NCBI RefSeq assembly: GCF_964204645.1
Contig: NC_134032.1
Location: 11,898,275 to 11,962,274 of the forward strand
Length of the DNA stretch: 64,000 bases
Origin: Tubulanus polymorphus
Taxonomy: Eukaryota; Nemertea; Palaeonemertea; Tubulaniformes; Tubulanidae
Reading direction: 5' to 3'
The position numbers and the translations under genes were made by a program. Below the pieces are notes generated by a model, which was not told the origin of the DNA, made no database searches, and was given only the letters and a program-made list of their open reading frames with translations. Below, one piece after another: positions 12,648 through 40,966 of the stretch. Every line of letters starts with the position of its first letter. The first letter of the stretch is position 1.

Positions 12648-13117
12648 TGTATGGAATTCATACTGTTTTTAGAGTAATATGAACGTACACTGAGAATATT
12701 ACTGTGGCAGTCGATGGATTCCATCTCTGGCAGTCGAGTGTTTGGTAAGAGCTCACGGAGACAAAATTAGTTTTCAAAATTAAATACTGTTTTGAGATGC
12801 TTACTTCTATCTATCTATCGCCTAAGTAAACCGTTCAGTTGTTTTTGAAAAAATATTTCTTTTTCAGAAATCTGCTTTTGGGTAAAATGTATGATGGTGA
12901 GCCAAGTCAAGTCGTCTTGTTATTTGGTTTTGAAAGCATTCAAAAAACCCTATTGTCAATTCACCATGAGCTGCATTAGAACGTCTGGTTGCAGAAAAAA
13001 AAGATTCAATTTCATAGCTCTATATTTCACACACATAAAGCTTTTAGCAGATGAAATAGATAAAATCGCCAAGTTAAGAATTACGGATTAAAGTAACGAT
13101 AGCTTTCAGCAGACTTA

Positions 13118-14071
13118 ATGGCGATCAATCAGTCGATTGCGTTAAGACTATACAGTTTGGTAATTGCGGACGTGAAGTTTATTCATAGGAAGCGATACCC
13201 GACGGCATTCATAGCGGGTACAGGCGCCAATATGGTTCTAGTCGCTCTGTTCGGTTTAGTCGGCAATGCGTTGATCATGATGCTGATGTTGACGCCTAAA
13301 TTCCGTAAACGATACTACGGTAATTTGTTTCTGATTCTCGCCGCATCCGACAGTAGTTTGATATGTATCTATCTATTGATCCATCTCAATGCAGTTTATC
13401 ACCACGTGAACGGAACTATTTTGATTAACATACGTCGCAGCGATTCCGTTTGTAAATTAGTATCACTGATCTATGCAGTTCTGGTGTCATCGGGACCGAA
13501 CCTTCTTAGCCTATTGTCTCTGGAACGAGCCTGCATCGTACGGTTCCCGTTTCAAGGACCTCGATTCTGGAATTCGAACACGGCCAGACTTATTTCTGCG
13601 GTATATGTTTTTGCTATGGTCAGCATTCCTTCATCTGAAGCGAGCGATGTGCTGTACATAAACGGAACCGGATGCGTCCACACAACCGACCAAACCGTAA
13701 ATAAAGCACTTCAAATTGTATGTATTTTATTCATACCGTGTTCGGCGATTATAATCTCCACGACGTTGATAGTTGTAACTTTAATGTTCAATCGTTTGAA
13801 GAAAATCCATTCGTCCGCATCAGTATCTCTAATGGTGGCCACTACGTGCGTACTGTACCTACTGTTAAGTCTGCCGGCCAATATCATTTGGATGAGGTCT
13901 TGGATCGATTCGAACGTCACACAATCGCAGATCGCATTCAAAATAGCCGACACGATTTATAGTTGGAATTGGGCGGTGAATTTCTACATCTATGTACTGA
14001 CGGGTAGAGAAATACGCGAGACGTTATGGCGTTATTTACCTCGCTTCCGAAAAAAATTACAAAAACCTTAA
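13118..14071 (+). CDS. Class A orphan GPCR, tandem copy 1
   Basis: A 317-residue single-exon receptor with seven hydrophobic segments. TM1 (GLVGNALIMMLML) is near residue 45, TM2 (LAASDSS) near 75, TM3 ends in LERACIV near 135 in place of DRY, TM4 is near 160, TM5 near 200, TM6 (LLLSLPANI) near 250 and TM7 ends in NFYIYVLTGREIRETL near 290 in place of NPxxY. A Cys before TM3 (SVCKL) and one in extracellular loop 2 (GTGCVH) can form the usual disulfide. The N-terminus is short and starts MAINQS. Differs from copy 2 at about 14 positions and from copy 3 at about 12 plus a deletion. TTTCAG lies 9 bases before the ATG, so a 5'-UTR intron acceptor is possible. Ligand unknown. Confidence 0.92.
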   Translation: MAINQSIALRLYSLVIADVKFIHRKRYPTAFIAGTGANMVLVALFGLVGNALIMMLMLTPKFRKRYYGNLFLILAASDSSLICIYLLIHLNAVYHHVNGTILINIRRSDSVCKLVSLIYAVLVSSGPNLLSLLSLERACIVRFPFQGPRFWNSNTARLISAVYVFAMVSIPSSEASDVLYINGTGCVHTTDQTVNKALQIVCILFIPCSAIIISTTLIVVTLMFNRLKKIHSSASVSLMVATTCVLYLLLSLPANIIWMRSWIDSNVTQSQIAFKIADTIYSWNWAVNFYIYVLTGREIRETLWRYLPRFRKKLQKP

Positions 14072-15762: not shown

Positions 15763-16385
15763 GTAAAGAATTCATATAGATTTCCATAGAGTAATAAGAT
15801 ATAAGATACTATTGTGGCAGTCGAAGGATTCCTTCTCTAGCAGTTTATTCCCGGGATATTTTCTTTTTTTCTTACGAAACCTCAATCGAATTTCACCATA
15901 ATGGTTCGTTCAGAGGCCAGTCTCGATTACATTATTTGATCTCATTTTTTTGGCCAAAGCGAACTCTGTGGCCAGTGGTTTCAGCTGAGTGTCTTGTAAG
16001 AGTTCAAGGAGATAAGATTAGTTCTCGAAATTAAATGCTGTTGTGAGATGCTTTTTCTATCTATCTATCTATCGTATTATAATAAAGTAATAAACCTTTC
16101 AGTGGTTTTTGAAAAAATATTTCTTTCTTAAATCTGCTTTTGAGTAAAATATATGATGATGAGCCAAGTCGTCTTGCTATTTGGTTTTCAAAGCATTCAA
16201 AACCCTATTGTCATTTTAACATGTGCTGCATAGAGCGTCTGGTTGCAGAAAAAAGATTAAATTGAAATTCCAAAGCTCTATATTCCACATACATAGATAA
16301 AGCTTTTAGCATTGGAAGAAATAAATAAATTCGCTGCTAAGTTAAGAATTACGGATTAAAGTAACGATTGCTTTCAGCAGACTTA

Positions 16386-17333
16386 ATGGCGATCAATCAG
16401 TCGATGGCGTTAAGACTATACAGTCTGGTAATTGCGGACGTGAAGTTTATTCATAGGAAGCGATATCCGACGGCATTCATAGTGGGTACAGGCGCCAATA
16501 TGGTTCTGGTCGCTCTGTTCGGTTTAGTCGGCAATGCGTTGATCATGATGCTGATGTTGACGCCTAAATTCCGTAAACGATACTACGGTAATTTGTTTAT
16601 GATTCTCGCCGCATCAGACAGTAGTTTGATATGTATCTATTTATTGATCCATCTCAATGCAGTTTATCACCACGTGAACGGAACTATTTTGATTAACATA
16701 CGTCGCAGCGATTCCGTTTGTAAACTAGTATCATTGATCTATGCAGTTCTGACGTCATCGGGACCGAACCTTCTTAGTCTATTGTCTCTGGAACGAGCCT
16801 GCATCGTACGGTTCCCGTTCCAAGGACCTCGATTCTGGAATTCAAATACAGCCAGACTTACTTCTGCGGTATACGTTTTCGCAATGGTCAGCATTCATTC
16901 ATCTGACGCGAGCGATGTGCTGTACATAAACGGAACCGGATGCGTCCACACAACCGACCAAACCGTAAATAAAGCACTTCAAATTGTTTGTATTTTATTC
17001 ATACCGTGTTCGGCGATTATAATCTCCACGACGCTGATAGTTGTAACTTTAATGTTCAATCGTTTGGAGAAAATCCATTCGTCTTCATCAGTATCAATGA
17101 TGGTGGTCACTACGTGCGTACTGTACCTACTGTTAAGTCTCCCGGCCAATATCATTTGGATGAGGTCTTGGATCGATCCAAACGTTTCTCAATCGCAGAT
17201 CGCATTCAAAATAGCCGACACGATTTATAGTTGGAATTGGGCGGTGAATTTCTACATCTATGTACTGACGGGTAGAGAAATACGCGAGACGTTACGGCGT
17301 TATTTACCTCGCTTCCGAAAAAAATTACAATAA
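16386..17333 (+). CDS. Class A orphan GPCR, tandem copy 2
   Basis: A 315-residue single-exon receptor colinear with copy 1 (13118), about 95% identical by eye. Same signatures: GLVGNALIM in TM1, LERACIV after TM3, NFYIYVLTGREIRETL after TM7. Substitutions are scattered, for example Val to Thr in TM3 (AVLTSS), Pro to His in TM4 (SIHSS) and Lys to Glu in intracellular loop 3 (RLEKI). It ends KKLQ, two residues shorter than copy 1. The start chosen is ATG at 16386, which aligns with both other copies; upstream in-frame codons are not conserved. The reading frame is intact, so the copy is probably functional. Downstream sequence to about 18.4 kb repeats that after copy 1. Confidence 0.92.
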   Translation: MAINQSMALRLYSLVIADVKFIHRKRYPTAFIVGTGANMVLVALFGLVGNALIMMLMLTPKFRKRYYGNLFMILAASDSSLICIYLLIHLNAVYHHVNGTILINIRRSDSVCKLVSLIYAVLTSSGPNLLSLLSLERACIVRFPFQGPRFWNSNTARLTSAVYVFAMVSIHSSDASDVLYINGTGCVHTTDQTVNKALQIVCILFIPCSAIIISTTLIVVTLMFNRLEKIHSSSSVSMMVVTTCVLYLLLSLPANIIWMRSWIDPNVSQSQIAFKIADTIYSWNWAVNFYIYVLTGREIRETLRRYLPRFRKKLQ

Positions 17334-19072: not shown

Positions 19073-19545
19073 GTAAAGAATTCATATAGATATCCATAGA
19101 GTCATATTATACTACTGTGGCAGTCGAAGGATTACTTCTCTAGCAGCTGAGTGTTTGATAAGAGTTCACGGAGATAAAATTAGTTCTCGAAATTAAATGC
19201 TGTTTTAGATGCTTTTTTTCTATCTGTCTATCGCCTTATGATAAAGTAATAAACCTTTCAGTGGTTTTTGAAAAAAATATGTCTTTCTTAAATCTGCTTT
19301 TGAGTAAAATGTATGATAGTGAGCCAAGTCGTCTTGTTATTTGGTTTTCAAAGCATTCAAAACCCTATTGTCATTTTAACATGTGCTGCATAGAGCGTCT
19401 GGTTGCAGAAAAAAGATTAAATTGAAATTCCAAAGCTCTATATTCCACATACATAGATAAAGCTTTTAGCAATGGAAGAAATAGATACAGCCGCTGCTAA
19501 GTTAAGAATTACGGATTAAAGTAACGATAGCTATCAGCAGACTTA

Positions 19546-20478
19546 ATGGCGATCAATCAGTCGATTGCGTTAAGACTATACAGTCTGGTAATTGCGGACG
19601 TGAAGTTTATTCATAGGAAGCGATACCCGACGGCATTCATAGCGGGTACAGGCGCCAATATGGTTCTGGTCGCTCTGTTCGGTTTGGTCGGCAATACGTT
19701 GATCATGATGCTGATGTTGACGCCTAAATTCCGTAAACGATACTACGGTAATTTGTTTCTGATTCTCGCCGCATCCGACAGTAGTTTGATATGTATCTAT
19801 TTATTAATCCATCTCAATGCAGTTTATCACCACGTGAACGGAACTATTTTGATTGACATACACCGCAGCGATTCCGTTTGTAAATTAGTATCACTGATCT
19901 ATGCAGTTCTGACGTCATCGGGACCGAACTTTCTTAGTCTTTTGTCTCTGGAACGAGCCTGCATCGTACGGTTCCCGTTCCAAGGACCTCGATTCTGGAA
20001 TTCGAACACGGCCAAATTTATTTCTGCGGTATACGTTTTCGCAATGGTCAGCATTCCTTCATCTGACGCGAGCGATGTGCTGTACATAAACGGAACCGGA
20101 TGCGTCCACACAACCGACCAAACCGTAAATAAAGCACTTCAAATTGTATGTATTTTATTCATACCGTGTTCGGCGATTATAATCTCCACGACGTTGATAG
20201 TTGTAACTTTAATGTTCAATCGTTTGAAGAAAATCCATTCGTCCGCATCAGTATCTCTAATGGTGGCCACTACGTGCGTACTGTACCTACTGTTAAGTCT
20301 GCCGGCCAATATCATTTGGATGAGGTCTTGGATCGATCCGAACGTCTCACAATCGCAGATCGCATTCAAAATAGCCGACACGATTTATGTTTGGAATTGG
20401 GCGGTGAATTTCTACATCTATGTACTGACGGGTAGAGAAATACGCGAGACGTTACGGCGTTATTTACAAAAACCTTAA
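19546..20478 (+). CDS. Class A orphan GPCR, tandem copy 3
   Basis: A 310-residue single-exon receptor, about 96% identical to copy 1 with an in-frame loss of seven codons at the C-terminus: RRYL is followed directly by QKP, whereas copies 1 and 2 carry PRFRKKL in between. Other differences include Ala to Thr in TM1 (GNTLIM), Asn to Asp in extracellular loop 1 (LIDIHRSD), Leu to Phe in TM3 (PNFLSL) and Ser to Val in TM7 (IYVWNW). LERACIV and NFYIYVLTGREIRETL are retained. The lost basic tail segment could alter G-protein or arrestin contact (inference). This is the last receptor of the array; the CUB receptor starts 1.55 kb downstream on the same strand. Confidence 0.92.
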   Translation: MAINQSIALRLYSLVIADVKFIHRKRYPTAFIAGTGANMVLVALFGLVGNTLIMMLMLTPKFRKRYYGNLFLILAASDSSLICIYLLIHLNAVYHHVNGTILIDIHRSDSVCKLVSLIYAVLTSSGPNFLSLLSLERACIVRFPFQGPRFWNSNTAKFISAVYVFAMVSIPSSDASDVLYINGTGCVHTTDQTVNKALQIVCILFIPCSAIIISTTLIVVTLMFNRLKKIHSSASVSLMVATTCVLYLLLSLPANIIWMRSWIDPNVSQSQIAFKIADTIYVWNWAVNFYIYVLTGREIRETLRRYLQKP

Positions 20479-21114: not shown

Positions 21115-21339
21115 GATGACTAAATCATTATTCATTATTCTCTCTAAATCAGATCTGGCAAACAATGAGCTTAAATTATTATGAAAAACACGATGTGATG
21201 ATAGCGAAACAATCATCCTTTACATTCTCTAAATAGAAATATCTATATGGAAATAGAATAGTGATAAAATGATGGTGGCGGAGCGACAATCGATCCTTTA
21301 TAGGCTGAAACGAGGAAATAAAATTGTCATACAAAAACC

Positions 21340-21405
21340 AATGAAATTTTCGAATTCATAAAATTGACGATATCGGTCTGTGTGAATATGGCGTTGTTGA
21401 TCAAT
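21340..21405 (+). pseudogene. Relic resembling first exon of CUB receptor, unit 3
   Basis: ATCGGTCTGTGTGAAT then ATGGCGTTGTTGATCAA at 21388. This copy is closer than units 1 and 2 to the intact exon at 22029 (ATCGGTCTGTGTAAAT then ATGGAGTCGTTGATGAA). It is cut after about six codons by an A-rich tract (21405-21470). Confidence 0.55.
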
Positions 21406-22028
21406 AAAAACAAAAAATAAAAAGACAAAACAAAACAACAGCAAAACAACAACAAAAACCATTTAAAACCTGATCTATACATATTTTCTATGTAATGATT
21501 TGTATAAAATCTCCACCCGATGGTGGTGCTGCTGAAGCGGCTTCAAAATTTATACTTAGGAAATAAACTACCAATTCAGCAAAATGATAAACGAAAGATA
21601 AAAAGTTTGTTTGTTTATATCAGCCCGAATGCGGGCCATTGCTCAAAACAAGGAAGACTAAAGCTGCGATATAACCAGGTATATATATATATTCAGGATA
21701 TTAACTATTGTCAGTTTGTAATTAGTTGTATCCGCCTTGATGTCGCCCATAGACTTCTGACGTGGGTAGAGAGGCAATGACGAGAGGGAAAAAAGGAAAT
21801 GAAATTACCACCAAAAACCCGGATTTCGTTATTGCATATTGTTTAGAATATTCATTTATCAGTTTTATTTATAAGTTTAGTTTGTCAGAGAGCATCCTGG
21901 TGGGGAGACAGGTGATCTCATCATGAAGCAAGTTCAGATTTAAACAAGGAAGTGAAATTATTATAAAAAAATCAAACCAACGCAGTTTACTAATATTCAT
22001 AATATTGATTCTATCGGTCTGTGTAAAT
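21405..22028. other. A-rich tract and upstream region of CUB receptor
   Basis: An A/C-rich run at 21405-21470 is followed by about 550 bp without a recognised exon and a (TA)n stretch near 21680. It must hold the CUB-gene promoter; no TATA box could be assigned. Confidence 0.4.
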
Positions 22029-25000
22029 ATGGAGTCGTTGATGAAGAGTTTGTTTCTGGTCGCTGTATTTTCATACAATCTAGGTAAATCTCTAGGTGAG
22101 CGCGCAAAAAATATCAATATAAATGAAGAAATCCCACACTTCGAATTTAAAATTATACGATCAAATTTATCATTATGAAACTACAAAGTTTCGGCTGTTG
22201 ACTAACAGCCATCATCAGGTGGAATGATGATGGCTGTTAGTCAACAGCCGAAACGTTGTGGTTTCATAATAATAAATTTGATCGTATAATTTTAAATTCG
22301 AACGGTGGGATTTCTTCATTTATCTACAGTATACACGGATTATAGTGTTTATGCGACAACTAATATCAATATTACTTAACATTTTGTTGATTTAGATGAA
22401 TTTTAGGAAAACTTCCAAACGAAACTGTTCGATCAGTGCTGTCGCGCAGGTGCTGATCTGGGGAACTCTATATTGAAAAATTGTCTCAAACCGTGCAATT
22501 TTACCTCATTTAACAGCCAGTATGACGCGTTGTTCCGGGACCCTAGCTAGGAATTTTCAAAGACAGCTGTGTATATAAAAAAGGAATACATCTCTAAAAA
22601 GAAAATGAACTTCTTGAGCCTAACAACCAAAAACCTAGCTTCGAACCCGGGCCTTCCGGCGTATTAGTCGAGCATGCTAACCGCTAGACCGTCATGATCA
22701 TGGAATTTGTATGTGTGTCTGGTCAGTCTCGTGACTATTTAGCTGTGGTGACCAGTCAGGTGTGATGACTGGTGGCCAGTCAGGTGTGGTGACTGGTGAC
22801 CAGTCAGGTGTAGTGACTATTCACTAACAAATATCATTTCTCTGATTACAATAGTTTCTAATCAGAACCTATCATCAAGCTAATCAGACCCATTTCACAA
22901 GGCAATTATCAATTCCGTGTTAAGTAGCAGTTTTATATAAGTTCACAGATGCGGGTAAATCTTCAGTATTTACTTGTATACTACAGTATCGGGAGACGTT
23001 ATCGACTCGACCTGTAGTAGAACACCTAGAGTACAGAATGGCACATCGGGCATCATCACAAGCCCTAAACATCCGAACAACTACGATGATAACCTGGTCT
23101 GTTACTGGTTAATTCGTACGCCCGAATACACGGTAAATATACAAATATTTGTGAAATGTTGGTCTTAAAAATCATTTCGTCGGGTTTTCTTTACTAACTC
23201 GTAGGGCTAAGATAAGTTTTGATTTAAAACCAGGGGCCAGTTGCCAGTCGTGACCTAAGTCCAAAAGCGGTCTTAAATCTTAAGACTGGTCTTAAGTTGT
23301 TAGATTGGCTATAGAACTAATTTTCAACATTAAGTCTAAGCTATGACTATGCAACCGGCCCCTGGGTTTAGTTCAATTGATTATTCTGGGTTAAAGTTGA
23401 GAACGGATCTTTTCAAACGGGTCCTGAACTCTGTAACCAACACGATTTGCTCGCTTAAGAATTACAATTAGATTCTAAAAAACATACATTTTTTGCAGAT
23501 GGTTGAAATATCATTTTACTCGAATTTTCGTATAGAGTCCACGAGTAGAGGTGGTTGTTTCGACTCGATATCGATACAAACCGGAAAAGGTAAAAATCTA
23601 AACACTGTTCATCACGCGAATGATTTTATTTACGACTTTAGTCTTTTAAGATATATTTCTTCATCAGCGAGTATATCAAATATTGCGGTTTGACTGCTCC
23701 TGATGATGGATGTATTTTTACGGATCCAGCTAGAAATTCTTAATTGATTTGTGTGTTTATCTTTACAGCATTTGGTGCTGAATATTGCGGCAGTACAGCG
23801 CCTACTAAACGTTACTATTCCGGTTATTACGTGGGCATCCAGTTTGTATCAAATGGCGCTAAAAGCTATCGAGGGTTTAAACTTTATTGGCGGTTATTAA
23901 AAGGTAGCTTATATAGTGAGAAGTTGATCATAGAATTCACAGGATCATGGGATCACAGATTACATAAAAACAATTCTATATATCTATTTATAGTTGATTC
24001 ATCATGCAGTAAAACACCTATAATACAGAATGATACATCAGGCATCATCACGAGTGCAAATTATCCGGGCTACTATTTTAACAATTTGAACTGTAGCTGG
24101 TTGATTATAGCACCCGAAAATATGGTAAATGCGTGTGAGATGTTGGACTTAAAAAAAATGATGTTGTCGGTTTTCTGCACTATAGCGCAGGAGTTCATCT
24201 GACCTGTGTAAACTGATCCTGCACTCCCGTAGACAACGCGATTGTTCAGTTTTTGAATAATAATTCGATTCCTAAAATTTTTTGCAGATGGTTGAAATAT
24301 CATTTGACTCGCATTTTAGTATTGAGTCCACAGTACGCGGTAATTGCTCGGACGCGTTGACGATAAAAAGCGAAACCGGTAAAAATCGAAACTGTCTTCA
24401 CAACGATTTTCATGATTCAAATGGTTTTATCAGATTTATTCTTTTATCAGGGAGTAATCGATATTGTGGTGTGGCTGCTCCCCGCAAACGAGTCCACGCT
24501 GGAAATGTGACAATCCAGTTCACATCAGGCAAATATAGAAACAAAGCCGGGTTCAAACTGTTTTGGCAGTTTGTACAAATCAAAGGTGCTTAACAATAAA
24601 ATTTGTTGAAAATGAAATATATGAACTGAAGTCTTAAATTTGAAATTGTTGGGTATAGTTTAGTTTCATTATATACTATATTTCAGATTCATATACGAAC
24701 AGTGTTTGGCCAGCAGTTGGGATCGGTTTACTACTCGCAACAGGCGTTACCATATCTACCATCCTCGTGCTCAGACGCCGCAGGAACCTGAGAAACAGAA
24801 AATCTGGTTTGTTAGCTATCATTTTACCTGAAACGGGGAAGAGTGGAAGGGGTATAGGGCCCCATAATTGTGTCGAATAAGATTTGATAACGGCGGTGTA
24901 CTGAGTCTACCAGAATATAATTTGACCGATGATTTCGGGAACAGGGAGTTCTAGTTTGAATCAGTGATATCTTATCTCACGTTTATCTAATCATTGCATA

Positions 25001-25711
25001 GGTAACAACAAGACGACCGATCCCGGGGATTTTATCTACCTCCAGGTTTGTAAATATAAATACATTTCCATTGTTTTCAATTTTTGATTTGTGAATATTT
25101 TTGTACATTGTTTACCGAATTATTTTTAGCCTACACCCGTTGGTGGTGATGACAGAATTTACACTACTCAGGGTACTGTCTACGAAGACATAGAAGACGG
25201 AGAGGTCTACGATAATGTAAATATCGTAGATGTTGTTAATGTCGCTGATATCAGGAACGTTACAGAAGATGACTACATTGTCGCAGATGTCAGAAAACCT
25301 CCAGAAGATGAATACGTTTTCGCAGATGCCAAGAACCCTCCAGAAGATACCTACATCATCTCAAACCCTCCAGAAGTTACCTACGCTGTCGCAGATGCCA
25401 GGAACCCTCCAGAGGATGAGTATGTTTTCGCAGATGCCAGGAACCCTCCAGAAGATGAATACGTTTTTGCAGGTGTCAAGAACCCTCCAGAAGATGAGTA
25501 CGTTTTCGCAGATGCCAGGAACCCTCCAGAAGATGAGTACGTTTTCGCAGATGCCAGGAACGCTCCCGAAGATGAGTACGTTTTTGCAGGTGTCAAGAAC
25601 CCTTCAGAAGATGAGTACATTTTCGCAGATGTCAGGAACCTACCAGAAGATGATTACATTGTCGCAGGCTCTGATGTCCTCGCCCACCAGATCACTATGT
25701 CCCGTATATAG
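22029..25711 (+). CDS. Two-CUB single-pass receptor with tyrosine-repeat cytoplasmic tail (9 exons)
   Basis: Exons 22029-22083, 22987-23132, 23499-23589, 23769-23903, 23994-24124, 24288-24585, 24687-24806, 25002-25045, 25130-25711 sum to 1602 nt, an exact 534 codons. The first exon encodes a signal peptide (MESLMKSLFLVAVFSYNLG). CUB1 (residues about 26-140) has Cys in STCSR, LVCYW, GGCFD and EYCGS; CUB2 (about 150-290) in SSCSK, LNCSW, GNCSD and RYCGV. A transmembrane helix (VGIGLLLATGVTISTILVL) is followed by RRRRNLRNRK as stop-transfer. The tail has FIYLQ, VYEDI and VYDNV (Grb2-type YxN), then about eleven copies of a unit like NPPEDEYVFADAR. CUB domains usually bind extracellular protein or glycan; tyrosines flanked by acidic residues suit tyrosine kinases and SH2 proteins (inference). 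No close named family recognised. An immune or adhesion receptor is possible. Confidence 0.85.
22121..22323. repeat. Long imperfect hairpin (about 95-bp arms) in CUB intron 1
   Basis: The left arm runs AAATGAAGAAATCCCAC ... GGCTGTTGACTAACAGCC and the right arm is its inverse, ending GTGGGATTTCTTCATTT. The loop is about 15 bp near 22215-22228. Similarity is high, with a few mismatches. No ORF. Confidence 0.9.
22629..22697 (-). repeat. tRNA-like SINE fragment
   Basis: On the minus strand a pol III A-box-like TAGCGGTTAGC and B-box-like GGGTTCGAAGC are spaced as in a tRNA. The anticodon and acceptor stems do not pair, so it is a tRNA-derived fragment rather than a working gene. Confidence 0.5.
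22752..22820. repeat. 24-bp tandem repeat, 3 copies
   Basis: CCAGTCAGGTGT recurs at 22752, 22776 and 22800, each followed by a TGACTGGTG-type spacer. Confidence 0.8.
23230..23365. repeat. Short inverted-repeat element in CUB intron 2
   Basis: The ends CCAGGGGCCAGTTGC and GCAACCGGCCCCTGG are inverted. The inner part has TTAAGACTGGTCTTAAG. Related sequence lies at the window start, at 28165-28312 and near 36.0 kb. Confidence 0.65.
24379..24450 (+). other. Candidate 72-nt in-frame intron (exitron) in CUB2
   Basis: Begins GTAAAAATCG and ends TTTTATCAG, with no stop codon, length divisible by three. The paralogous position in CUB1 is a true intron starting GTAAAAATCT (23590-23768). Splicing it out gives the compact spacing before YCG expected of a CUB domain and removes an unpaired Cys (NRNC). 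Confidence 0.55.
25250..25680 (+). repeat. 39-bp coding tandem repeat (tyrosine array)
   Basis: About eleven units of 39 bp, centred on GATGAGTACGTTTTCGCAGA, encode a 13-residue unit with one tyrosine each. Central copies follow an ADAR / ADAR / AGVK order, suggesting expansion in blocks. Two units are shortened or altered (DTYIIS, VTYAVA). Confidence 0.92.
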
Positions 25712-25770: not shown

Positions 25771-25776
25771 AATAAA
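25771..25776 (+). terminator. Polyadenylation signal of CUB receptor gene
   Basis: AATAAA 60 bp after the stop codon at 25709-25711. Confidence 0.6.
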
Positions 25777-26756: not shown

Positions 26757-29700
26757 TCATTCTGAGTCTAATTCCTTCAAAGTGCTGTCCATTAATTGCA
26801 GCTCGGTCTCCTGGTCATACTTATCCCTAACCGACAACCGATTCCGGTCTAGGGGGCGCTGCAGTGTAGTACTTGTTGATTGCGGGTGAATGATTGGACT
26901 TCCGCTCGATGGTGGCGTCGCTGGCGGCTCACGTTCAAACTTAAGCCGGCGTCGAGGAGTTTGTGGAGTAGAATCACGTGACTCCGCGCTATAATGTTTG
27001 CGATGGTTTTCCACAGACGCTTCCAGGGTGGGGAATGCCCCAGACGAGTGAGCTGCCGGTGCGCGACCCAATTTGCGCATTACCACGATGTAAAACTTCG
27101 GACAGAACTTGATCCCGGTTAACGTTAGTTGCGTTATGGCTAACGTAAGCGTTAGTATAACTATTCGCGTGTTGACCGTTTCAACAATGAAGTAAATAGG
27201 CGTTACCGTCGCCGTAATTAACAGATATATATAACACGAAGCGTTGACGTACGGTAACTGAGAGGAAGTGACGTCACCGATCGTCTGCGTCGATTTTTCT
27301 GTGAAATAAGAGGCCAACATGACGACACTCATCGAATAGGAAAACGCTATCAGTTCGAAAAGGTGAAACGGGTCGTCGCAAAATCGCAAGGTCAAGGTCG
27401 TTTTCGGAATGTCGTAGAGCTTGATGCCCGATTTGTCGACGTAAGTGCTCGCTAGGTGGAGCGCTGCGCCGACGGCTGAGAGCGCATGTGTGAATAAAAT
27501 CGGCGCGAAAAACTCGGCGCCACGTGCGTTGCAAAAATGGCGTAGCAGTCGCCTAGCAACGAACCGTTTAACTTGAAACGTCTGCGCGAGGAGCATGACG
27601 GGATGGACGGTGAACGTGAATTGAAATAGGAACGGTATCACCCGGCAGATGGGGCCGTCTGGTGGTAGTAGATACAACAACGGATAACAATAACCGAAAG
27701 CAGTCAAATAGACGAACGTGAATTTCAACTGTATCGATTTGATAGTCGGTAAATTCCGGAAAATTCCGATCGTCACGAGTATGATGAGCAAACTCAGATA
27801 ACCGATGATGACGATGATAAGAATGACGATGTTTAGAGGACAGAGTTTACCGATTGTGATATCAGTGTTTGGTCTACACCAGGTCTGGTTATCACTGGGG
27901 TAGGTGTGCTCCGGGCAATACGTGCATTCGACGGACATTGACATATTGGACACGTGACCCTCGGCACATGGGCGACACCCCCAGCAGCATTCAGACGGAC
28001 TGGGCAGCACTTCCTCACCTGGCGGACAGTAATCACTACATATTGATACTGGAACTGTGTTATCTGGAAAAGATCGATCATACACATTGATTAGGCTCAT
28101 GATGAACAGTTCGTTTATTCCTGCAAACCGTCTATAGTTTTAAACCCTATTTTGAAACAATATTCCATAGCCGGTTTCATAGTCATGGCTTAGGCTTAAG
28201 ACCTGTCTAAGGCCATCTTAGTTCTATAGCCGATCTTATATTTAACTAAATACTCATCTTTAGATTTGAGACAACTTTCTACTTAAGTCCCAACTATGGA
28301 ATTGGCCTCATACCATTTAAGGCTACCGTTACGCCATCTATACATTCTTAACCCTTTGTTATATACTTTGAGACCCGATCTCTATCTCTATGACTACCCC
28401 GTCGCTTGCGCCATCTATACCTACCTACACTGTTCCACTGTATTTTACTTTCGTCGAACTTCAGCGATGATCCACCATCATCTTGCAAACTCCAATTCCC
28501 GATCATAGCGAATTCCAACAGACCCGTGACGGCATTCTTTTGCACGTTCAGTATTTCGTATTCCGCCCGCTGGAGGTCGCCGCCAGGCCGGAAATTGATT
28601 GTTATACCGCCGAATCCTGGGAAGTCGGCTTTTGCAACGAACGGTAAAATGTCTCTATGTGTCAACAAACCGAGTTCGTGTTTGTGCCAAAGTTGTCTGT
28701 CGTTCAGGGCCATTATGAGAGCGGTGAGGAGAACCATTAGCGCATTGGCTGCATTTATGGGGGCTAACAGGACTCGAGTTTTATCTACGAGGTCCTCCAG
28801 TTTCAGCTCTTCCGAACAATTAGCCACGAAACCGTGCTCGGTGAAATTACACTTCCGGTGTATACCGACCGGAAGCGATCGCTTACGCCAATGCAAACGT
28901 TCGAATACGTACTGGCGCAACCAAGGATTGCCGTTGATCGCTTGACGTATAGTGCGGTCTTGCAAGAACTGTAGAAAGTCGTTGTCCCTGTACATCGGTA
29001 GACCGACCCCGATTATGCCCTGAACAACGCTTGCTTCCATTTCTAGCACGTTGGCGTTCGAGGCCCACGACTCGCAAGCTATCCAAGTGATACCTATTGG
29101 AACGTGAGGAAAAAAATACAAATTAGACAAGTCTATCAAAGTTATTTCTTTTACAAAATTAACTTTCTATCTTCTGTCTTCTTTTTGAATATTGTAGAAA
29201 CCACTTTAAGTGCACACATCCCACCAACTAGTGTTGATGAAGAGTGAATCCGGGAACACTGACCTATCATGGAGCTTCACCGGGGTCAAATACCCATGAA
29301 ATACCATAAATACCCATCACATCAAAAAAGTTATTATTTGTACATGTATAAATCTAAAAAAGGGGCAGTAGCATTGCTTTCGGGAGTATTGTTAGAAGAT
29401 TCGACTTTCGTTGTGAGTCAGGAAAAGAGCGATGGTTAACATGATTCGAATGCGGTGTCCTTGACGAATAAAATGAATTCAACGGGACTTGAACCCACCA
29501 CCTATCGTTTATGAGTCAAACACTCTATCCCCCAGGCTACGGAGACCTGACAGGTGTAATGGTGACAGGGTTTTTGTTGATCCGTGATAAATCAACACGA
29601 TCATATAAGATTCGCAATTGTCTCTTCAAAATTGACGCCCGTATTGATCGGAATGTTCAAAATACATCATTTTACTTACGGCGAAGATTTTGTCTGGACG

Positions 29701-32700
29701 CTTCGGCCAGTATCTGTTCGGCATGTTGCCAGTACATGAACAGTACGACGACCTTGACATTGTCGTCTTGTTTAAGGTGGGCGACGATCTTGCGCACTTG
29801 AGATTCCGCCTCCGGCGAGCGAGGGTTGTAAATCTCATCTCTGGCAAGACAAATCTCGCGTGTTTTCAGCTCCCGTTGCAGAGTAGCGATACCTGAAATC
29901 GTAAATCAAACATGAATAAAAATGAAGAAAAAGGTGAACACAAATACATTCGCTTTGTTTAAGTCTCGGCTGGTAAGAAAGCTACTGAAGAAGCCAACGC
30001 AATAACATAGAGACCAGTCTACGCTCGTGAGAACCAGACTAAGCTCAATTTGGTTACATTGCCAATCGAAAAAGTTCAAACCATAGTCATTTGTCCAAAC
30101 CCGATCTAACAATTTCAGAAAGAGTTTTTTTGAGTATCAAAGTATTTAAGGGCTAATTTCCTGAAAAACCTGAACTTGTCGACCTAAAAAAAGAATTGCA
30201 CTAGCAAACGTTGCGCAAATTACTAATGGGTTGGAATTGTTATTTCGAAAGCGGAAAGTAAACTTACAGTCTACTGTATACACACATAAAGTATACCAAA
30301 TAAATATTACCTGAAGGGCGTGTTGAGAGGGAGTGTTGAAAGTACCCTCTTTAGGACCAACCGATAAATTCATTTATCTCGATTGTTTTGTTCTAATGGA
30401 ACAAAGGGTTTATTTTGTTATCGAAATATTTGCGGTTTAAAAAAATGTTTGATATACGAAAAATACATAAGTATGTTTATCAGAAAAAGCCTGGCATCTG
30501 TGGTTTTTGCGGTAAAAGAAATGAGATAAAAGTTCGTGATAAAAACGAACAATGCGAATTTTCCAGCAGGCGATAGGGCGGTGGGCAATCTTCCAATTTA
30601 TAATCGGGGTACAATCATGTGGGGCAGTTTCCGACTGACTGAAAGGCAATTCTTTATATTTAGAAAATGTATTTTTCTGAGGGTGATGGGCAGCACATTC
30701 CGTTTGTTTATGCCGAGAAAAATCTTCGAGAAGAGATTTCAAGGAAACTTCTTCTGGTCAAAAGCCCTTCTACTAAACGAGATGGCACCCAAGAAGTGCC
30801 CTGACTCTTTTGTGCTGAGCCGGCCATCTTTAGGTAGGGAATTTTTAAAACCGCTGTTGTAAGTATAGTTTTAAAAGATAACTCGTTAAGTGGAGAAAGA
30901 CAGACTTATCGTGATGCATATCCCTGCGGTACTAGAGACACTTATGATAAATGGCAATACAGCAGGAAAGCAGGTAAGTGCGAGAGAGAGAGAGGAGAAG
31001 AGTGGGAGAGCAGCTGATAAACCTGTCTATAGGTCAATGACCTTGACATTCACTTGAGCATGTTTGAACGAAAGAAAATGTTCGTCTACTACTGAATAAT
31101 CATTTTGCTCTTATCACAGTCCAAAGTCAAATTCAATCCGCAATCTTTTTAAGTAAAAAAGATATTTTGGAACTCCGAGTTCTTACAAGGACGTTGAGTC
31201 AAGGTTGATACGGTTGAATAATTCATTGTAGCAGATGTTGCATTGTGATAATTAAAAGTAAATTGTTTAGACAGAAAAAAATGCGAAGCACGGTAGAGCG
31301 ATGGGATGGATGCATTTATAACCACAAATTGTGCCACACGCATGTTGAATATCCGGAGTGTCTATTCATGATCGAATGTCTACTAGCGCACCTGGTGGAT
31401 CATCACTTGCTGCAAGTGGAATCCTGTCGTTGTAGTTGATATTAGGATTAGGATTAGGATTAGGATTTTATTTACACTCCAACCATTTCTATGGTACATG
31501 GAGGGAGACTTATACAAAGTATACAATATTTACAATTAACAGAAAGTATAAACTTGTTTTGATAAAATATAACAAAGTTATTAACAATATATACATACAC
31601 TATTTACAACATACTAATTATTGGAGGGATTTATATACATCTAAGCCTTTTTTAATGAATTTTGCAAGGTGGATTGTAGGATTTCTTAGAATATCAAGAT
31701 TGCCAAAAGAGTTCAGATTCAGAATATCCTACTGCACACTAGTGACACCTGGTGAATCCCACATATCACAAGATTAATCCCCTGTTGCCACAGTTGCACT
31801 CCCCGAAGCCAATTCTTTATTGATGAATGATTGGCAAATATGGTACTGTATTTGTTCTCCGCAAAAGTGCTGCTGTGCTATTTTTTCGCTAAATGCAAAC
31901 ACAATAAATCGATTAATGTTAAAGGGTCGTCTGTTATCTGTAAGTGACGTATAAATCGGGTTCTGACGGCTATAAATCGCAGGTTGTACATGTACCATCA
32001 TTAGGGAAGCACTAAATCTAGTGAATATAATTGCATTGGCACATTTACATGTTAAGAATAAATTTCATCATTAAGATACCCTGGCCTATCTCGGGATTTC
32101 TAGTCAAAGCCAAGAACTGACGATGAAAAACCAATCCACCTGAACTGCTGAAGTTTATCTTTCCGTTCAAACGAACCGTTCACACAGTTTACACGGTTAC
32201 AAGTATTTTTGTATGCGTTTCTCAAACCTAAGGATTATAAGTTGTGTGTAGTAAGTAACGAGCTTAAGTATTTCTCCTCTAAAATACCAGAACTAGTTTA
32301 CTATCTTTCCGTGGTTTGTTGGAGAACATTTCTATGAACCACTCTACCGTAGGGCGAATTTATCTCATTTTTACAAATCTCAAGATCTTTTCGCTTAAAT
32401 TCGAAAACACGATTATCCGATGATTAATGGCCATCTCTCCAATTGACGTAAAATGCGGTATTTCATTCAAAAAGATTCGTATTTTTCACACAAAGCGCGG
32501 CGTGTGTAAAAATTGTTCCTCTTACTCAAATATAAGGAGAATCGTGAAGGGTTTTTGAAAATGTAGAACAGAGACACCAAGTACGCACTTGATAAGTTAA
32601 ATGGATTTCTGAAAGTCCATTTATCATAGTTATGTGGCTTTTAGAATGACATTTTGACAGCTTGCAATATCAGTGAGTTTTGAAATTTTCCGGAACTAGT

Positions 32701-33961
32701 GAAATACAATAAACGATGTAATTAAAAAAGTCGAAGTTGTTATATTTTGGCTTTATCGGGAAAATGTTTCGCGTGCATTAGCAAAACGTTTGCTACATCA
32801 AAACAGAAAAACACGTTTTTTCACAAAACGTTTTGAGTATCAGTTATACGTTCTGGGGAATATTCTACTCAGAATTCTATAACAGAAAATTTAAAAAAAG
32901 ACCAATTCAGAAATACTTTTCGATCAGTCTCATCTCGAAAACTTCGAAATTTAATATCTAGGTTTCAATCTAGTTATTTCTGATTTGTGTGTGACGGGCT
33001 TCGCTATGAAGGGGTTAATGAAATACTTACCCTCTCTACTGTATTCTAAATCCGTTGCTATGGTGGACACGTAATTCCATTTGAAGCGTTCGATAATTTC
33101 CGCCATCGCCCGGGCCTGATTGTCGTCGGCCGGAATCGTTCGGAAGAACGACGAATATTTCCGATCGCTGAGCAGCACCCTGGTGGAGAAATAGCTAACT
33201 AATGGAATATTGTATATAGCGAATAGGCCGGCAACCGCCGCGCTTATAAAACTTGACGAAGGACCTACTAATCCTACGATTGGTTTATTCAAACACGGCT
33301 CTAACGTTTTTTTCTGTTTCCTATATCTCCTCCTAGAGCTCGTGGTTCCGTTCGTCTCGCTGTAATTCCCGTAAATTGGCGCCGAAGTCGTCATTTCCGA
33401 TTTCGGTGACACGCTAGGTGGCGCCATGGTTGCTTTCTCCCATCGATCCTCGCGAGAACAATATGGCCGACCGTTCACGAGGCGACCTTGAACTTCGGGC
33501 ATTTTGAATTTCGTTTGATTGAACGTACAATAACATTTATTCGTTTTCGGATGGCCGCAAACTTTTTTTGCTTCGTCGGCGATTTCAGCCCATTTTTCGA
33601 TATCGTTAACGAATCCGACCGCTTGGTGCATGGCGGTGGGCACGTGCATGCACGTGTCCCGAAAATCGTAACCGATCCGAATTTTACGCCGACTTCGTCT
33701 GAAAAGCCGTTCCGAACGCTCGTTAAATTTATCGATTATGTAAATCATCGCCTCGACCGAAATGATATGCGACAGCGCCAACTGGCGGCAAACATTCGAC
33801 CGCTCATAAACGTCCGACATCATCCTGTTGTGTATGGGCAGTAGGCCACCGATTACATAGTCGCCATCTTTGTAAACTCGCGTGTGCTTTCCGTTAGCCA
33901 CCGCTGACCGGAAGCAGGCGCACGCAACAATGAACGTCAACGCCGAATGCACCGTTACCAT
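26757..33961 (-). CDS. Class C GPCR, divergent metabotropic glutamate receptor-like (4 exons)
   Basis: Exons on the minus strand: 33961-33031, 29892-29680, 29093-28425, 28063-26757. All three introns are phase 1 and the model gives 1039 residues. Signal peptide (about 1-22), Venus-flytrap ligand domain (about 30-590) with GPSSSFISA, FRTIPADDNQARAM and KWNYVSTIA, a nine-cysteine domain (about 612-670, exactly nine Cys from SIC to TWC), seven transmembrane segments (about 680-925, TM7 ending FCPKFYIVV), and a 110-residue tail rich in Ser, Thr and Pro. The lobe-1 loop near residues 165-225 is long and basic. Against known mGluRs, Ser/Thr (GPSSS, YFST), Asp (PADD) and Tyr (LEYS) positions of the glutamate site are kept, but the Arg before VEAM is Ser (ISVEAM) and the Asp of the SDGW segment is Glu (CESWAS). 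Ligand therefore uncertain. Confidence 0.9.
28165..28312. repeat. Short inverted-repeat element in receptor intron 3
   Basis: Starts ATAGCCGGTTTCATAGTCAT and ends AACTATGGAATTGGCC. Related to 23230-23365. More diverged. Confidence 0.5.
29465..29545 (-). repeat. tRNA-like fragment in receptor intron 2
   Basis: The minus strand carries TAGCCTGGGGGATAGAG (A-box-like) and GGGTTCAAGTCCCG (B-box with a good T-arm). A possible anticodon loop CTCATAA would read Met, but its stem pairs poorly and the acceptor stem does not form. Pseudo-tRNA or SINE head. Confidence 0.5.
29893..33030 (-). other. Intron 1 of class C receptor
   Basis: A 3.1-kb intron with no supported exon on either strand. Holds the GGATTA repeat at 31441-31467 and the AT-rich tract that follows it. 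Confidence 0.5.
31441..31467. repeat. (GGATTA)n short tandem repeat
   Basis: Just over four units. It is immediately followed by ATTTTATTTACACTCCAACC, a layout seen at the 3' end of some retroelements inserted on the opposite strand. Not a perfect TTAGGG telomere repeat. Confidence 0.75.
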
Positions 33962-34978
33962 GGTAAAAACGGTCGTTAATATTCGAACTATCCAATTGCG
34001 AGCATTCTCCGCCCAATTACGTTATCCATGTATGTACGTAAACACAAGAGCGGCAAAGGTCTTCATAACAGTAACGTGCCTATATAGCGTGGAAACTGAG
34101 TCACCTCATATACTCACTTTTAACAAGACTTATATTTCGGTAGCTTATCTAATCCAGTTGCAATTGCATCGAGATGAAAAAAAAATATACGTAAACCTAG
34201 CTCTATTTAATAGTCGCTTGTGTTCTGCAGTTGTCAAAACAGACAGCGATGCGGGTACAGTTTCATCCGCTCTTCCTGCTCCCCAATCCTTCCTACCTTC
34301 CATCCACGCTCACATTATTACTATGAAACATGCGGTTGTTTTGATTCATCGAACAGGATGGGTTATCGGTATCCTCCGTATTACAGTGCTGTATGGTGTA
34401 AATATTTAAATAACGCCAGGGGAAGCCAACAGTTACAAATTCCATCCGTATTAACCGGCATGGAATTCTTTTTCTAATTGAAAATGACGAATTCCATATA
34501 TCATGCTACTGGAGGGCTCAAATAATAGCACTTCAAACCTTAATGAAATCCTGTGGTTGTTGGTATTCTAAAAGCACAGCTCTTGAACTATAGGACACGT
34601 ATTCATCGTAGAAAATGACCTATTGCGTGCTTGGTGTATTAATTACCCCGATAATTGTATAATTGCCCTAAAATACTTGTCTCGACTTTTTAGCATCGTG
34701 GTGATAGCTGGCATATTTTGTATATATGCTTACTGAAACAACAAACATACCAATGTCAAGGACATGTAACATTTGGTAAGTTGAAAGTTCGGCAGATGGC
34801 GCAAGGGTAGCAAAGATGCCGTCATCACTAAAGCAGAAAGTGTTAATATATTTTGACTGGTAAACTTATATGAAAATTTCGATGTTCGAATATAATAAAT
34901 TATGAATGTAATCAATTTGAGAATATACGTTGATTTGATGAATTGAGAAGTCCCGTAATAGAATTTTTGAATAAAGCC
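33962..34978. other. Intergenic between class C receptor and PAN-lectin gene
   Basis: No exon recognised. The first few hundred bases include the 5' UTR and promoter of the minus-strand receptor; no core element is clear. Confidence 0.4.
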
Positions 34979-38910: not shown

Positions 38911-40467
38911 CTATTTTTTAGCAGGTTTGGTCTCAGTAGTTGTAGTCGGGTCTGACGTAACAGGAATAGGTGGTGGTGGTATCAACATTGGTGGATCCGT
39001 TGGTTGGGGCCTGTACATTCCGCTACCTACCGCCGTCCTAACACCACTGGTAGTTGTGGGAGGGTCTGCAACTGGCGGCATAGGTGGTATTAACATTGGT
39101 GGATCGGTTGGTCGGGGCCTGTACATTCCTTTACCTACCGCCGTCCTAACAGTAGTCGTTGTGGGCTGCGGCGAATGGTTTTCTGGAAAATGTCAATGAG
39201 GCCTAATATAGACCTGCACTTAATTTGAATGAATGGAGTTAAACCACTCAAAATAATCGACTTTTTGAGTACCGTCTCCTAATCAATTTAATTCATCGAT
39301 TGCATTGTTGTACCGGTACCGCATTGAATTCCTATAGTGCCCTTTTCATTGTGGGATTACTCATTTATTACGTATGCATAGAATTAGAGATTTTCAACCG
39401 CCTGTGTGCAAAACCAGCCATTTTTTCATAATATATTAAGCATTAGGCTACAGTACGCGATTACTCTTGCCCATCCCCCTCCTACTCTGACCGATAAATG
39501 TACGCCAAACTGGTAGTATTATTACCCTCCCCCTCAACCTATAACTCTTAACCATGTATCAGTCATCTTGGTGTAATATCTATGAGAATGCTTCGAATCC
39601 GAAGGGTAATTTCAAAATATTTGGATTAATTGTCTCGATGTTCGCTTAAATGAGTCACTATAACTCATCACATTTGAAATAAAACTTTAGGTAAATTTAT
39701 GTTTTTCATAACTTAACACCAAAGCTATATTTCCCAGGAAAGAAGCTAATATGTTCAAATCCAAGAAATTTGACAAAATGGAGGATTTTCTCTCTCATTC
39801 AACTGGACTTAAGGAGTCTTTTTGCCAATCCATCTAATTGGTACAGAACTGGAAATATATCGGATATTCAGTTGTTGTCCGCGATTTTTGGCATTCTGTT
39901 AAGACATAAATGAGGTATGTACCCCAAAAAGTAAGCAAAATATCCCAGAAAAACAGGTCTCATCAATTAATAAATAGACATTAGACCATTGTGGATTTTG
40001 TTTAGAGTCTAGTGCGAGTCGGGTTGCCAACTCCATGCGCGCCTTTCGTGCACTGGATCTCATCAAAATGGCGATTCAAGATGGCTGCTTCGATATGAAA
40101 ATGTGTATAAATGAGTAACTTTGAACTACACATAAAACTTACCATTGATGAATAAGACTTGGTTTGGTGGTATTTTGGTTGAAACCACCACCGCCATTTG
40201 TTTCGAATCGAAAATGTCGCATCGTTTTTCGTCCTCCGCATATTTGAATCCACCGCAAGCATTGTTGGCCGTATCCATGCAACGAACCGCGCAGCCAATC
40301 AACGATACGCTTTTCGAACCGTTATCAATCTTCGCAGGGGTCGTTGCTTGCATATTTCCTCCAGGGATTTTCTTGAATAGGAAATTTTGACTTTCGATTC
40401 CCGGCATCAGCGATGACGTCAAAAGCAACAAACACCAGCAGACGATCAACATAAGCACTGACGTCAT
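38911..40467 (-). CDS. Secreted PAN-domain protein with proline-rich repeat tail (2 exons)
   Basis: Exons 40467-40143 and 39182-38911 joined by a phase-1 intron, 198 residues. Signal peptide (about 1-27), then a PAN/apple-like domain (about 28-108) with LIGCAVRCMDTANNACGGF and EKRCDIF. The second exon encodes two copies of a unit of about 36 residues: VRTAVGKGMYRPRPTDPPML, IPPMPP and a Thr run, ending KPAKK. This looks like a stalk or O-glycosylated mucin-like tail. The PAN exon is 325 nt, exactly the length of that of the neighbouring gene at 41806-42130, and the two are similar in protein sequence, so they are recent paralogues whose second halves differ. Binding partner unknown. Confidence 0.82.
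39353..39515. mobile_element. MITE, degraded copy, in PAN gene intron
   Basis: GGGATTACTCATTTATTACG followed by interior sequence shared with 61487-61654 (GCCATTTTTTCATA; ATTAAGCATTA; CAGTACGC). The right end is decayed. Confidence 0.65.
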
Positions 40468-40966
40468 TTTTTTGTGTATATACTAGTCCTGCGCGAGTAA
40501 ATTTTCCGCAAGGAAAAGTGAAGCCAAGCCGGACTATCATATATCCTGTAGTGAGGATGTGCCTTCTCGCTTTAATGATCGGAAGTTCGAATGACAGAAA
40601 AAACCGATATAAAGTTTGAGAACGCTACGCAGCAGCCACCTCTTGTTTGAAGTGTGGTTCATGAATAGATTATTAGCTACGTGTAAGAGTCCCGTGCGGT
40701 TTTTCTTCCAATAAAATCGAATTTGACAAATGAGACAAAAATCATCGAATATTCGAAGGTTAATACCGATTGGCACAATATTTCATTCCAGTCCATCGCC
40801 ATACGTAACCACATATTTTTGCTGCAGTAACAAATGTTTTTCAATAGTTTTTAGATTTGACATACAAGTAGTTTTGAAGCCGTTAAAAAACTAGTTAATA
40901 TCGCAAATACAGCGGTGCAGAAGATCTATGTCGAAATAAAGTTTTGAATCCAGGATTCTAAAATTC

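What the first reader, a model, noticed from the sequence alone, without database searches (positions are those of the whole stretch)
25130..25711. Cytoplasmic array of about eleven tyrosine units on a CUB receptor
The correct frame, set by splice phase from the transmembrane exon, encodes a 13-residue repeat of the type NPPEDEYVFADAR, each with one tyrosine preceded by acidic residues. Before it lie VYEDI and VYDNV, the latter a Grb2-type pYxN site. The longest ORF in the region is in another frame and is meaningless. Tandem tyrosine motifs on a receptor tail are known from docking proteins such as p130Cas, but I know of no CUB receptor built like this. Repeat homogeneity at DNA level and the ADAR/ADAR/AGVK order suggest recent block expansion, so copy number may vary between individuals.
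Basis: partly seen in the sequence, partly recalled or inferred. Interest (0 to 1): 0.82.

Follow-up and report, generated by a model that had tools for sequence, protein, structure and literature searches.

The report
Receptor family with tyrosine-repeat tails
An animal gene encodes a cell-surface receptor whose inner tail carries eleven similar tyrosine units, and the same genome holds about ten relatives whose tails have anywhere from none to about thirty such units, so the number and kind of signalling docking sites seems to evolve by repeat expansion.

Summary
Exons 24687-24806, 25002-25045 and 25130-25711 join in one frame; upstream the gene is modelled from 22029 as signal peptide, two CUB domains, transmembrane helix and a 219-residue cytoplasmic part. 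It holds 15 tyrosines, 11 in tandem units at 25256-25675.

Unit number runs from 0-1 to 32, tail-exon tyrosines from 4 to 38; residues after the tyrosine differ by subfamily (YVFA here; YVGP/YIVP; YVNT). Three members carry the tail on an EGF/FN3-type ectodomain instead of CUB. The membrane-proximal part is under purifying selection (dN/dS 0.16-0.35 against 7 paralogs). Of 150 units 148 keep the tyrosine, with fewer nonsynonymous changes there than expected (p about 0.001, approximate); within the window's array alone no such signal appears.

Most likely a multivalent phosphotyrosine docking tail, working like p130Cas or the CUB receptors DCBLD1/2 but a member of neither. Phosphorylation, partners and variation between individuals are untested. 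New variant of a known kind.

The parts
22029..22083 (+). Exon 1: start codon and signal-peptide-like stretch MESLMKSLFLVAVFSYNL (modelled)
   Evidence: Open frame, GT donor, phase 1 out; no transcript; signal peptide judged by eye
22987..23132 (+). Exon 2: first half of CUB 1 (modelled)
   Evidence: AG/GT bounds; Pfam CUB
23499..23670 (+). Exon 3: middle of CUB 1 (modelled; internal splicing uncertain)
   Evidence: AG/GT bounds, in frame; several paralogous CUB exons have an in-frame stop here
23769..23903 (+). Exon 4: end of CUB 1 (YCG...GFKLYW)
   Evidence: similarity to cubilin and neuropilin chains
23994..24124 (+). Exon 5: first half of CUB 2
   Evidence: Pfam CUB
24288..24585 (+). Exon 6: second half of CUB 2
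   Evidence: Pfam CUB
24687..24806 (+). Exon 7: transmembrane helix followed by RRRR
   Evidence: Hydropathy peak at residue 323 (2.25 over 19 residues), phase 1 in and out
25002..25045 (+). Exon 8: linker GNNKTTDPGDFIYLQ; with exon 9 it makes YLQP
   Evidence: AG/GT bounds; same kind of exon found by pattern in L014-L016, L018, L019
25130..25255 (+). Start of exon 9: membrane-proximal part with IYTTQ, VYEDI, VYDNV and a tyrosine-less repeat-like end NVADIR
   Evidence: First 36 codons: dN/dS 0.16-0.35 against seven paralogs
25256..25675 (+). Tyrosine array, 11 units of NPPEDEYVFADAR type (unit 3 is 10 residues)
   Evidence: relatives at further loci
25676..25711 (+). C-terminal end VLAHQITMSRI and stop codon
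   Evidence: AATAAA at 25771

Best explanation
The gene encodes a type I receptor with two CUB domains whose repetitive, acidic cytoplasmic tail is a multivalent phosphotyrosine docking platform. Ligand binding or clustering would bring the tail to a cytoplasmic tyrosine kinase (an acid-directed one such as a Src-family kinase), several of the 11 array tyrosines would be phosphorylated, and SH2 adaptors would bind in number, beside membrane-proximal tyrosines (YLQP, YTTQ, YEDI, YDNV in the window). The tail belongs to a family of at least 11 loci in this genome, in which unit expansion, tail-exon duplication and change of the residues after the tyrosine alter how many and which docking sites each receptor has. 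SHOWN: open frame and splice fit, CUB domains, array, family, differences in unit number and motif, purifying selection on the membrane-proximal part, low nonsynonymous change at the tyrosine codon across the family. INFERRED: expression, topology in the cell, phosphorylation, kinase, adaptors, ligand, any graded output.
For: Continuous frame over 9 modelled exons; CUB at 94.1 bits. Tail relatives at 10 further places; in 17 tail exons the tyrosine frame runs open from an AG to a GT donor or stop over 58-257 residues (the exons were cut in codons from start patterns, so divisibility by three is built in). Membrane-proximal dN/dS 0.16-0.35, window against 7 of 10 paralogs. Of 150 units found by a pattern that leaves the tyrosine position open, 148 have Y; on a tree of 79 distinct units the Y codon shows 6 synonymous and 2 nonsynonymous changes, expected nonsynonymous share 0.80, p = 0.0012, while codons 2, 3 and 8 lie near their neutral share (16 of 22, 11 of 18, 11 of 16 nonsynonymous; expected 0.67). 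Subfamily motifs match recalled SH2 classes: 4-8 YxxP (CRK type) in each of five C8 paralogs, 5 YVN (Grb2 type) in each of three C2 paralogs. 46 SH2 matches, counted by exon, over the cut-off in the genome. Precedents: DCBLD1/2, BCAR1, choanoflagellate proteins.
Against: No transcript or protein data. Within the window's own array synonymous changes are not in excess (10 of 31 distinct changes, expected 24%, p = 0.20). The window's array motif (YVFA, YIVA) fits no SH2 class that I can name with confidence. Tyrosine-less acidic units (3-8 in each of L009-L013) show that part of the repeat does without tyrosine, and units that lost Y with its neighbours escape my pattern. Codon 6 is also low in nonsynonymous change (5 of 12, expected 0.67), so the Y codon is not alone. 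L018 has lost its unit and L019 has one, so a long array is not needed by all members. Of the membrane-proximal tyrosines only that of YEDI is present in all 11 first tail exons; YTTQ is C in L016 and YDNV is missing in the three C2 members. The unit tree rests on 30-base sequences that probably exchange by conversion, so the p value is approximate. The exon chain from TM to tail came out open in 6 of 10 paralogs tried by pattern; the other four failed because my pattern missed or overran the TM exon.
Confidence: 0.7

Rival explanations
1. The array is a coding minisatellite tolerated in a disordered tail: only the membrane-proximal tyrosines signal, and the repeats are neutral spacer that grows and shrinks.
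For: Unit numbers of 11, 32, 21, 20, 19, 19, 9, 9, 9, 0 and 1; no excess of synonymous change in the window's own array; several flanking codons near-neutral; tyrosine-less units in five paralogs.
Against: 148 of 150 units keep Y, and the Y codon shows 6 synonymous against 2 nonsynonymous changes.
Confidence: 0.17
2. The unit is an SH3 ligand of PxxDY type (as recalled for Eps8 and for Nck with CD3 epsilon), and phosphorylation of the tyrosine switches binding off.
For: The core P-E-D-[TDE]-Y is close to PxxDY; 21 of 150 units read PEDDY, in the window unit 11 alone.
Against: 59 of 150 units read PEDTY and 8 PEDEY; T replaces P at -4 in 49 (TEDDY, TEDTY, TEGDY). The motif is recalled, not tested.
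Confidence: 0.06
3. The tail is chiefly a trafficking or inhibitory element: YEDI and YDNV act as YxxPhi endocytic or ITIM/ITSM-like motifs and the array recruits phosphatases.
For: TVYEDI fits the recalled ITSM pattern TxYxx[IV]; YEDI and YDNV fit the recalled YxxPhi pattern (sequence read).
Against: Position +3 of the units is A in 69, P in 36 and T in 15 of 150, and V or I in only 28; both classes call for a bulky hydrophobic residue there (recalled).
Confidence: 0.07

Closest known systems
DCBLD1 / DCBLD2 (discoidin, CUB and LCCL receptors; PMC6029619)
   Same: CUB-bearing transmembrane receptors with many cytoplasmic tyrosine motifs; YxxP sites are needed for CRKL SH2 binding, promoted by Src-family kinases and Abl (abstract)
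   Different: DCBLDs have LCCL and FV/FVIII domains and eight YxxP motifs, not in uniform tandem units (recalled); here CUB domains only and tandem units, YxxA in the window
BCAR1 / p130Cas substrate domain
   Same: Many repeated tyrosine motifs; 15 YxxP in human, 6-25 across species (PMC5043372, passages)
   Different: Has SH3 and FAT-like domains and no membrane anchor (passages; anchor recalled); motifs not in uniform tandem units (recalled)
Choanoflagellate transmembrane proteins with cytosolic YxxP repeats (PTSG_05573 and others; PMC5043372)
   Same: Membrane proteins with several tyrosine motifs in the cytosolic part (10 YxxP in PTSG_05573; passages)
   Different: No CUB ectodomain mentioned in the passages seen; YxxP rather than YxxA; up to 38 tyrosines in the tail exons here
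CDCP1 / Trask
   Same: CUB receptor with a tyrosine-phosphorylated tail; tyrosine 762 binds PKC delta (PMC4200232, passages); Src as its kinase is recalled and in reference titles seen there
   Different: Few tyrosines (five, recalled) and no tandem array (recalled); Pfam CDCP1_CUB_6 only E 0.22, below cut-off

Membership tests
DCBLD receptors | CUB domain in the ectodomain | tested here: met
   Pfam CUB 94.1 bits, cut-off 21.4
DCBLD receptors | LCCL and FV/FVIII (discoidin) domains | tested here: not met
   No such match up to E = 1 in the modelled 560-residue protein
DCBLD receptors | Several intracellular YxxP motifs | tested here: not met
   The window has one, YLQP at the exon 8/9 junction, and none in exon 9. 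Five C8 paralogs have 4-8
BCAR1 / p130Cas | N-terminal SH3 and C-terminal FAT-like domain | tested here: not met
   No SH3 or FAT-type Pfam match up to E = 1
CDCP1 | CDCP1-type CUB domains | tested here: not met
   PF23665 at 11.6 bits, cut-off 27
ITAM receptors | YxxL/I-x(6-12)-YxxL/I (recalled) | tested here: not met
   Sequence read: YEDI-x5-YDNV in the window, spacing and last residue off; array +3 residue is A in 10 of 11 units and S in one
Phosphotyrosine docking tail (works like) | Phosphorylation and SH2 binding of the units | not testable with these tools
   No biochemical data; motif and conservation evidence only
Tyrosine-tail receptor family of this genome | Shared membrane-proximal motif and tyrosine unit | tested here: met
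   11 loci; L018 keeps the membrane-proximal motif only

The most novel reading that the evidence does not exclude
The tail is a portable signalling module whose valency and SH2 specificity are written in a coding minisatellite: gain and loss of 39-base units, plus duplication of whole tail exons, tune receptor output from one to about thirty docking sites and move units between YxxA, YxxP and YxN classes, on both CUB and EGF/FN3 ectodomains, probably in a recognition (immune or self/non-self) receptor system, with repeat number varying between individuals.
Probability: 0.33. Interest if true: 0.8.

Novelty: new variant of a known kind. Interest (0 to 1): 0.62.

Why it matters
How the number and kind of phosphotyrosine sites set signalling output is, to my knowledge, studied mostly with engineered versions of proteins such as LAT, nephrin and p130Cas. 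Here is a natural series in one genome: related receptors with 0, 1, 9, 11, 19-21 and 32 units, and subfamilies that differ in the residues after the tyrosine. It would allow direct tests of valency and of how SH2 specificity evolves, and it shows one signalling tail joined to two unrelated ectodomains.

Tried and rejected
PDB search with the tail alone gave only spurious IgG matches (best E 0.039). Viral contigs: one stretch matched a pattern, none was confirmed as a relative. Pfam gives no family for the window tail (LCAT E 0.09, below cut-off); a C2 tail scores over the nominal cut-off of DUF2880 (29.5 bits, cut-off 25, no single stretch passing), which I take as repeat composition. Weaker tail matches dropped before the count of 11: C8:557083 (remnant with stops); C10:11000585 (L020, other repeat letters); C3:27789449 (L029, a proline-rich repeat); C10:8924229 (L030, a 13-residue repeat of TEATVVGADCSQM type with Y in some units, not obviously related); C9:10941407 (L021, 7 stops, nothing found by pattern or tblastn); and, not looked at, C12:2642380 (17% identity), C2:31547229 (E 9e-9 but 25% identity and 11 stops), C8:227260-228426 and C2:31774934 (stops inside). 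The within-array test for purifying selection gave p = 0.20. A clean three-unit block was not resolved. The chain TM exon-linker-tail was tried by pattern in 10 paralogs: open in L014-L016 (with a stop in sequence that I took in excess ahead of the TM helix), L010, L011 and L018; no open join for L009 and L019 and no TM match for L012 and L013, although the pieces are readable. The Pfam CUB census of the genome did not complete. Paper searches for the arrangement: searches returned 0 papers; two searches returned 1 each (listing only), not on this subject. Searches list known systems.

Full report
WHAT IS THERE. Extending upstream gives a nine-exon model, 22029-25711, 560 residues, no internal stop: signal-peptide-like start, two CUB domains (Pfam CUB, 94.1 bits, cut-off 21.4; best solved relatives cubilin and neuropilins), a transmembrane helix, RRRR, and a 219-residue cytoplasmic part with 15 tyrosines, 50 acidic (D, E) and 21 basic (K, R) residues. 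An AATAAA lies at 25771. CUB splicing is the weak point: several paralogous CUB exons have an in-frame stop in the middle, which suggests a further small intron; the exons from the membrane to the stop do not depend on it.

THE ARRAY. Tandem Repeats Finder gives 25242-25667, period 39. I count 11 units at 25256-25675, ten of 13 residues and one of 10; Y, and the E three places before it, are in 11 of 11. Units 7 and 8 are identical; units 1, 3, 4 and 11 are the most diverged (7 of 30 to 12 of 39 bases from the consensus; 6-8 of 39 in units 1 and 4), roughly what unequal exchange predicts (inference). Within this array alone there is no excess of synonymous change (10 of 31 distinct changes, expected 24%, p = 0.20).

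A FAMILY. A search of the window's own genome (G000, 267.8 Mb in 77 contigs, unnamed) with the 193-residue tail gave 28 matches. With, and after dropping the weak matches listed under Tried and rejected, they fall at 11 loci: the window; C8 at 14.87, 15.10, 15.56, 15.87 and 16.28 Mb; C2 at 4.372, 4.381 and 4.392 Mb; C8 at 3.117 and 4.142 Mb. The tool calls such counts lower bounds. I read 17 tail exons at the 11 loci. Each follows an AG directly and its tyrosine frame stays open for 58-257 residues to a GT donor or a stop; they were cut in whole codons from start patterns, so divisibility by three and absence of internal stops are built into the cut and are not evidence in themselves. Tail-exon tyrosines per locus are 14 (window), 38, 25, 24, 23, 22, 12, 12, 11, 4 and 5; unit numbers are 11, 32, 21, 20, 19, 19, 9, 9, 9, 0 and 1, two of the 150 without Y. 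The C8 14-16 Mb members have two or three tail exons in a row; the three of the 14.87-Mb member each begin with the membrane-proximal motif, so whole exons were duplicated as well as units. The 4.14-Mb member has one unit (PTEDTYIFAGVT); the 3.12-Mb member appears to have lost its unit by a frame change.

CONSTRAINT. The first 36 codons of the tail exon (RIYTTQ..YEDI..YDNV) have dN/dS 0.16-0.35 between the window and 7 of the 10 paralogs at dS 0.67-1.5 over 33-36 codons (L011, L013 and L015 were left out of the pairs as near-copies), which supports frame and function. Of the tyrosines there, only that of YEDI is in all 11; YTTQ is C in L016 and YDNV is absent in the three C2 members. A unit pattern that restricts positions 1, 3-6 and 8 but leaves the tyrosine position open finds 150 units; 148 have Y, one D, one F. 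On a FastTree of the 79 distinct 30-base units with Fitch reconstruction, the Y codon shows 6 synonymous and 2 nonsynonymous changes, expected nonsynonymous share 0.80, binomial p = 0.0012. Codons 2, 3 and 8 lie near their neutral share, codon 10 above it (9 of 10), codons 6 and 9 somewhat below (5 of 12, 11 of 22; expected 0.67). The E at position 4 was required by the pattern, so its 150 of 150 is no result. Units that lost Y together with the neighbouring residues would be missed: five C8 paralogs have 3-8 tyrosine-less acidic units (NATDDDVD type) ahead of the Y array.

MOTIFS. After the tyrosine the window has VFA in 6 of 11 units, IVA in 2, and IFA, AVA and IIS once each. Of all tail-exon tyrosines the five C8 14-16 Mb paralogs have 4, 7, 8, 8 and 8 in YxxP; the three C2 members have 5 in YxN each, alternating with YVVA/YIVA. 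YxxP and YxN are the recalled CRK and Grb2 SH2 classes; the YxxP-CRK link is also in PMC6029619 (abstract and one section) and PMC5043372 (passages). YVFA matches no class that I can name safely. In the window, L014-L016, L018 and L019 the linker exon joins the tail exon as YLQ|P, itself a YxxP site (sequence read); L009-L013 have a different linker end (read by eye). The SH2 profile gives 46 matches over its cut-off in the genome, counted by exon.

TWO ECTODOMAINS. The C2 members show no match to the window's ectodomain in the 10 kb held for each. In L014 the exons upstream of the tail look like EGF, F5/8C and FN3; one FN3 passes Pfam's cut-off (30.4 bits, cut-off 25), the others are below theirs. 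TM exon, a basic exon, linker and tail join in one frame in three of three C2 members, apart from a stop in sequence that I took in excess ahead of the TM helix. Among these three genes the first 60 columns of the F5/8C-like exon differ at 23-26 of 57-59 residues (dN 0.28-0.42, dS 0.15-0.33), the rest of it at 8-12 of 124, the tails at 2-7 of 174, and one FN3 exon (two of three copies compared) at 0 of 112. That looks like a diversifying binding surface on a constant receptor, by selection or conversion or both; dS is raised there too, and no significance test was run.

HOW IT MOST LIKELY WORKS. I take it as a multivalent phosphotyrosine docking tail (0.7). Receptor clustering, phosphorylation by an acid-directed cytoplasmic kinase and SH2 recruitment are inferred from DCBLD1/2, p130Cas and CDCP1, not shown. 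The main rival is that the array is tolerated spacer beside signalling membrane-proximal tyrosines (0.17).

COMPARISON. It works like DCBLD receptors and p130Cas but is a member of neither: no LCCL or discoidin match, a single YxxP in the window's cytoplasmic part, no SH3 or FAT match. Tyrosine-repeat tails on membrane proteins are known from choanoflagellates (PMC5043372, passages). New here, as far as searches show, are uniform tandem units on a CUB receptor, the range of unit number among paralogs, the change of motif class by subfamily, and the sharing of one tail between two ectodomain types. Those searches cover open-licence PMC papers only and used few terms.

Noticed in passing
L014 3602-4156, L015 2818-3366, L016 2168-2710 (G000 C2, 4.37-4.39 Mb): F5/8C-like exon whose first 60 columns are hypervariable between three neighbouring copies (dN 0.28-0.42, dS 0.15-0.33) while the rest of the exon and the tail are nearly identical; looks like a recognition surface.
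   Followed up: partly
G000 C2:4157517-4158044 (-): A fourth copy of the C2 ectodomain exon (89% identical) with no tail match listed nearby: tail lost or replaced.
   Followed up: no
L018 3756-4103 and L019 (reverse complement) 3148-3381: 15-residue repeats with tyrosines (ELNTVQFGEYHNEYI type) upstream of the transmembrane exon of the two short-tail members; meaning unknown.
   Followed up: no
L030 (G000 C10:8923500-8926000, -): A long 13-residue repeat of TEATVVGADCSQM type with Y in place of C in some units; weakly matched by the C2 tail, probably unrelated.
   Followed up: no
G000 C8, many places (for example 0.90, 2.27, 2.33, 3.14, 3.52, 4.12, 16.03 Mb): Many CUB exons related to this receptor at places without a tyrosine-tail match (150 of 334 candidates scored).
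   Followed up: no
window 22119-22323: Near-perfect palindrome (99-nt arms, 95% complementary, 7 nt apart) in intron 1, like a foldback or MITE element.
   Followed up: no
window 13103-14071, 16365-17333, 19531-20478: Three tandem, very similar open frames for seven-transmembrane receptors (Pfam Srg, 24.7 bits, first copy tested); copies of the stretch 21201-21407 lie after the first and second.
   Followed up: partly
window 26757-34021 (-): Class C GPCR-like pieces: 7tm_3 and NCD3G at 26757-28139, ANF_receptor at 32951-34021.
   Followed up: no
window 40126-42154 (-): Two PAN-like exons, one above Pfam's cut-off and one below.
   Followed up: no
window 43376-43613: Nearly perfect GAGAGG array of 238 bases next to a 92-base repeat at 43651-43828; another 92-base array lies at 1324-1929.
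   Followed up: no
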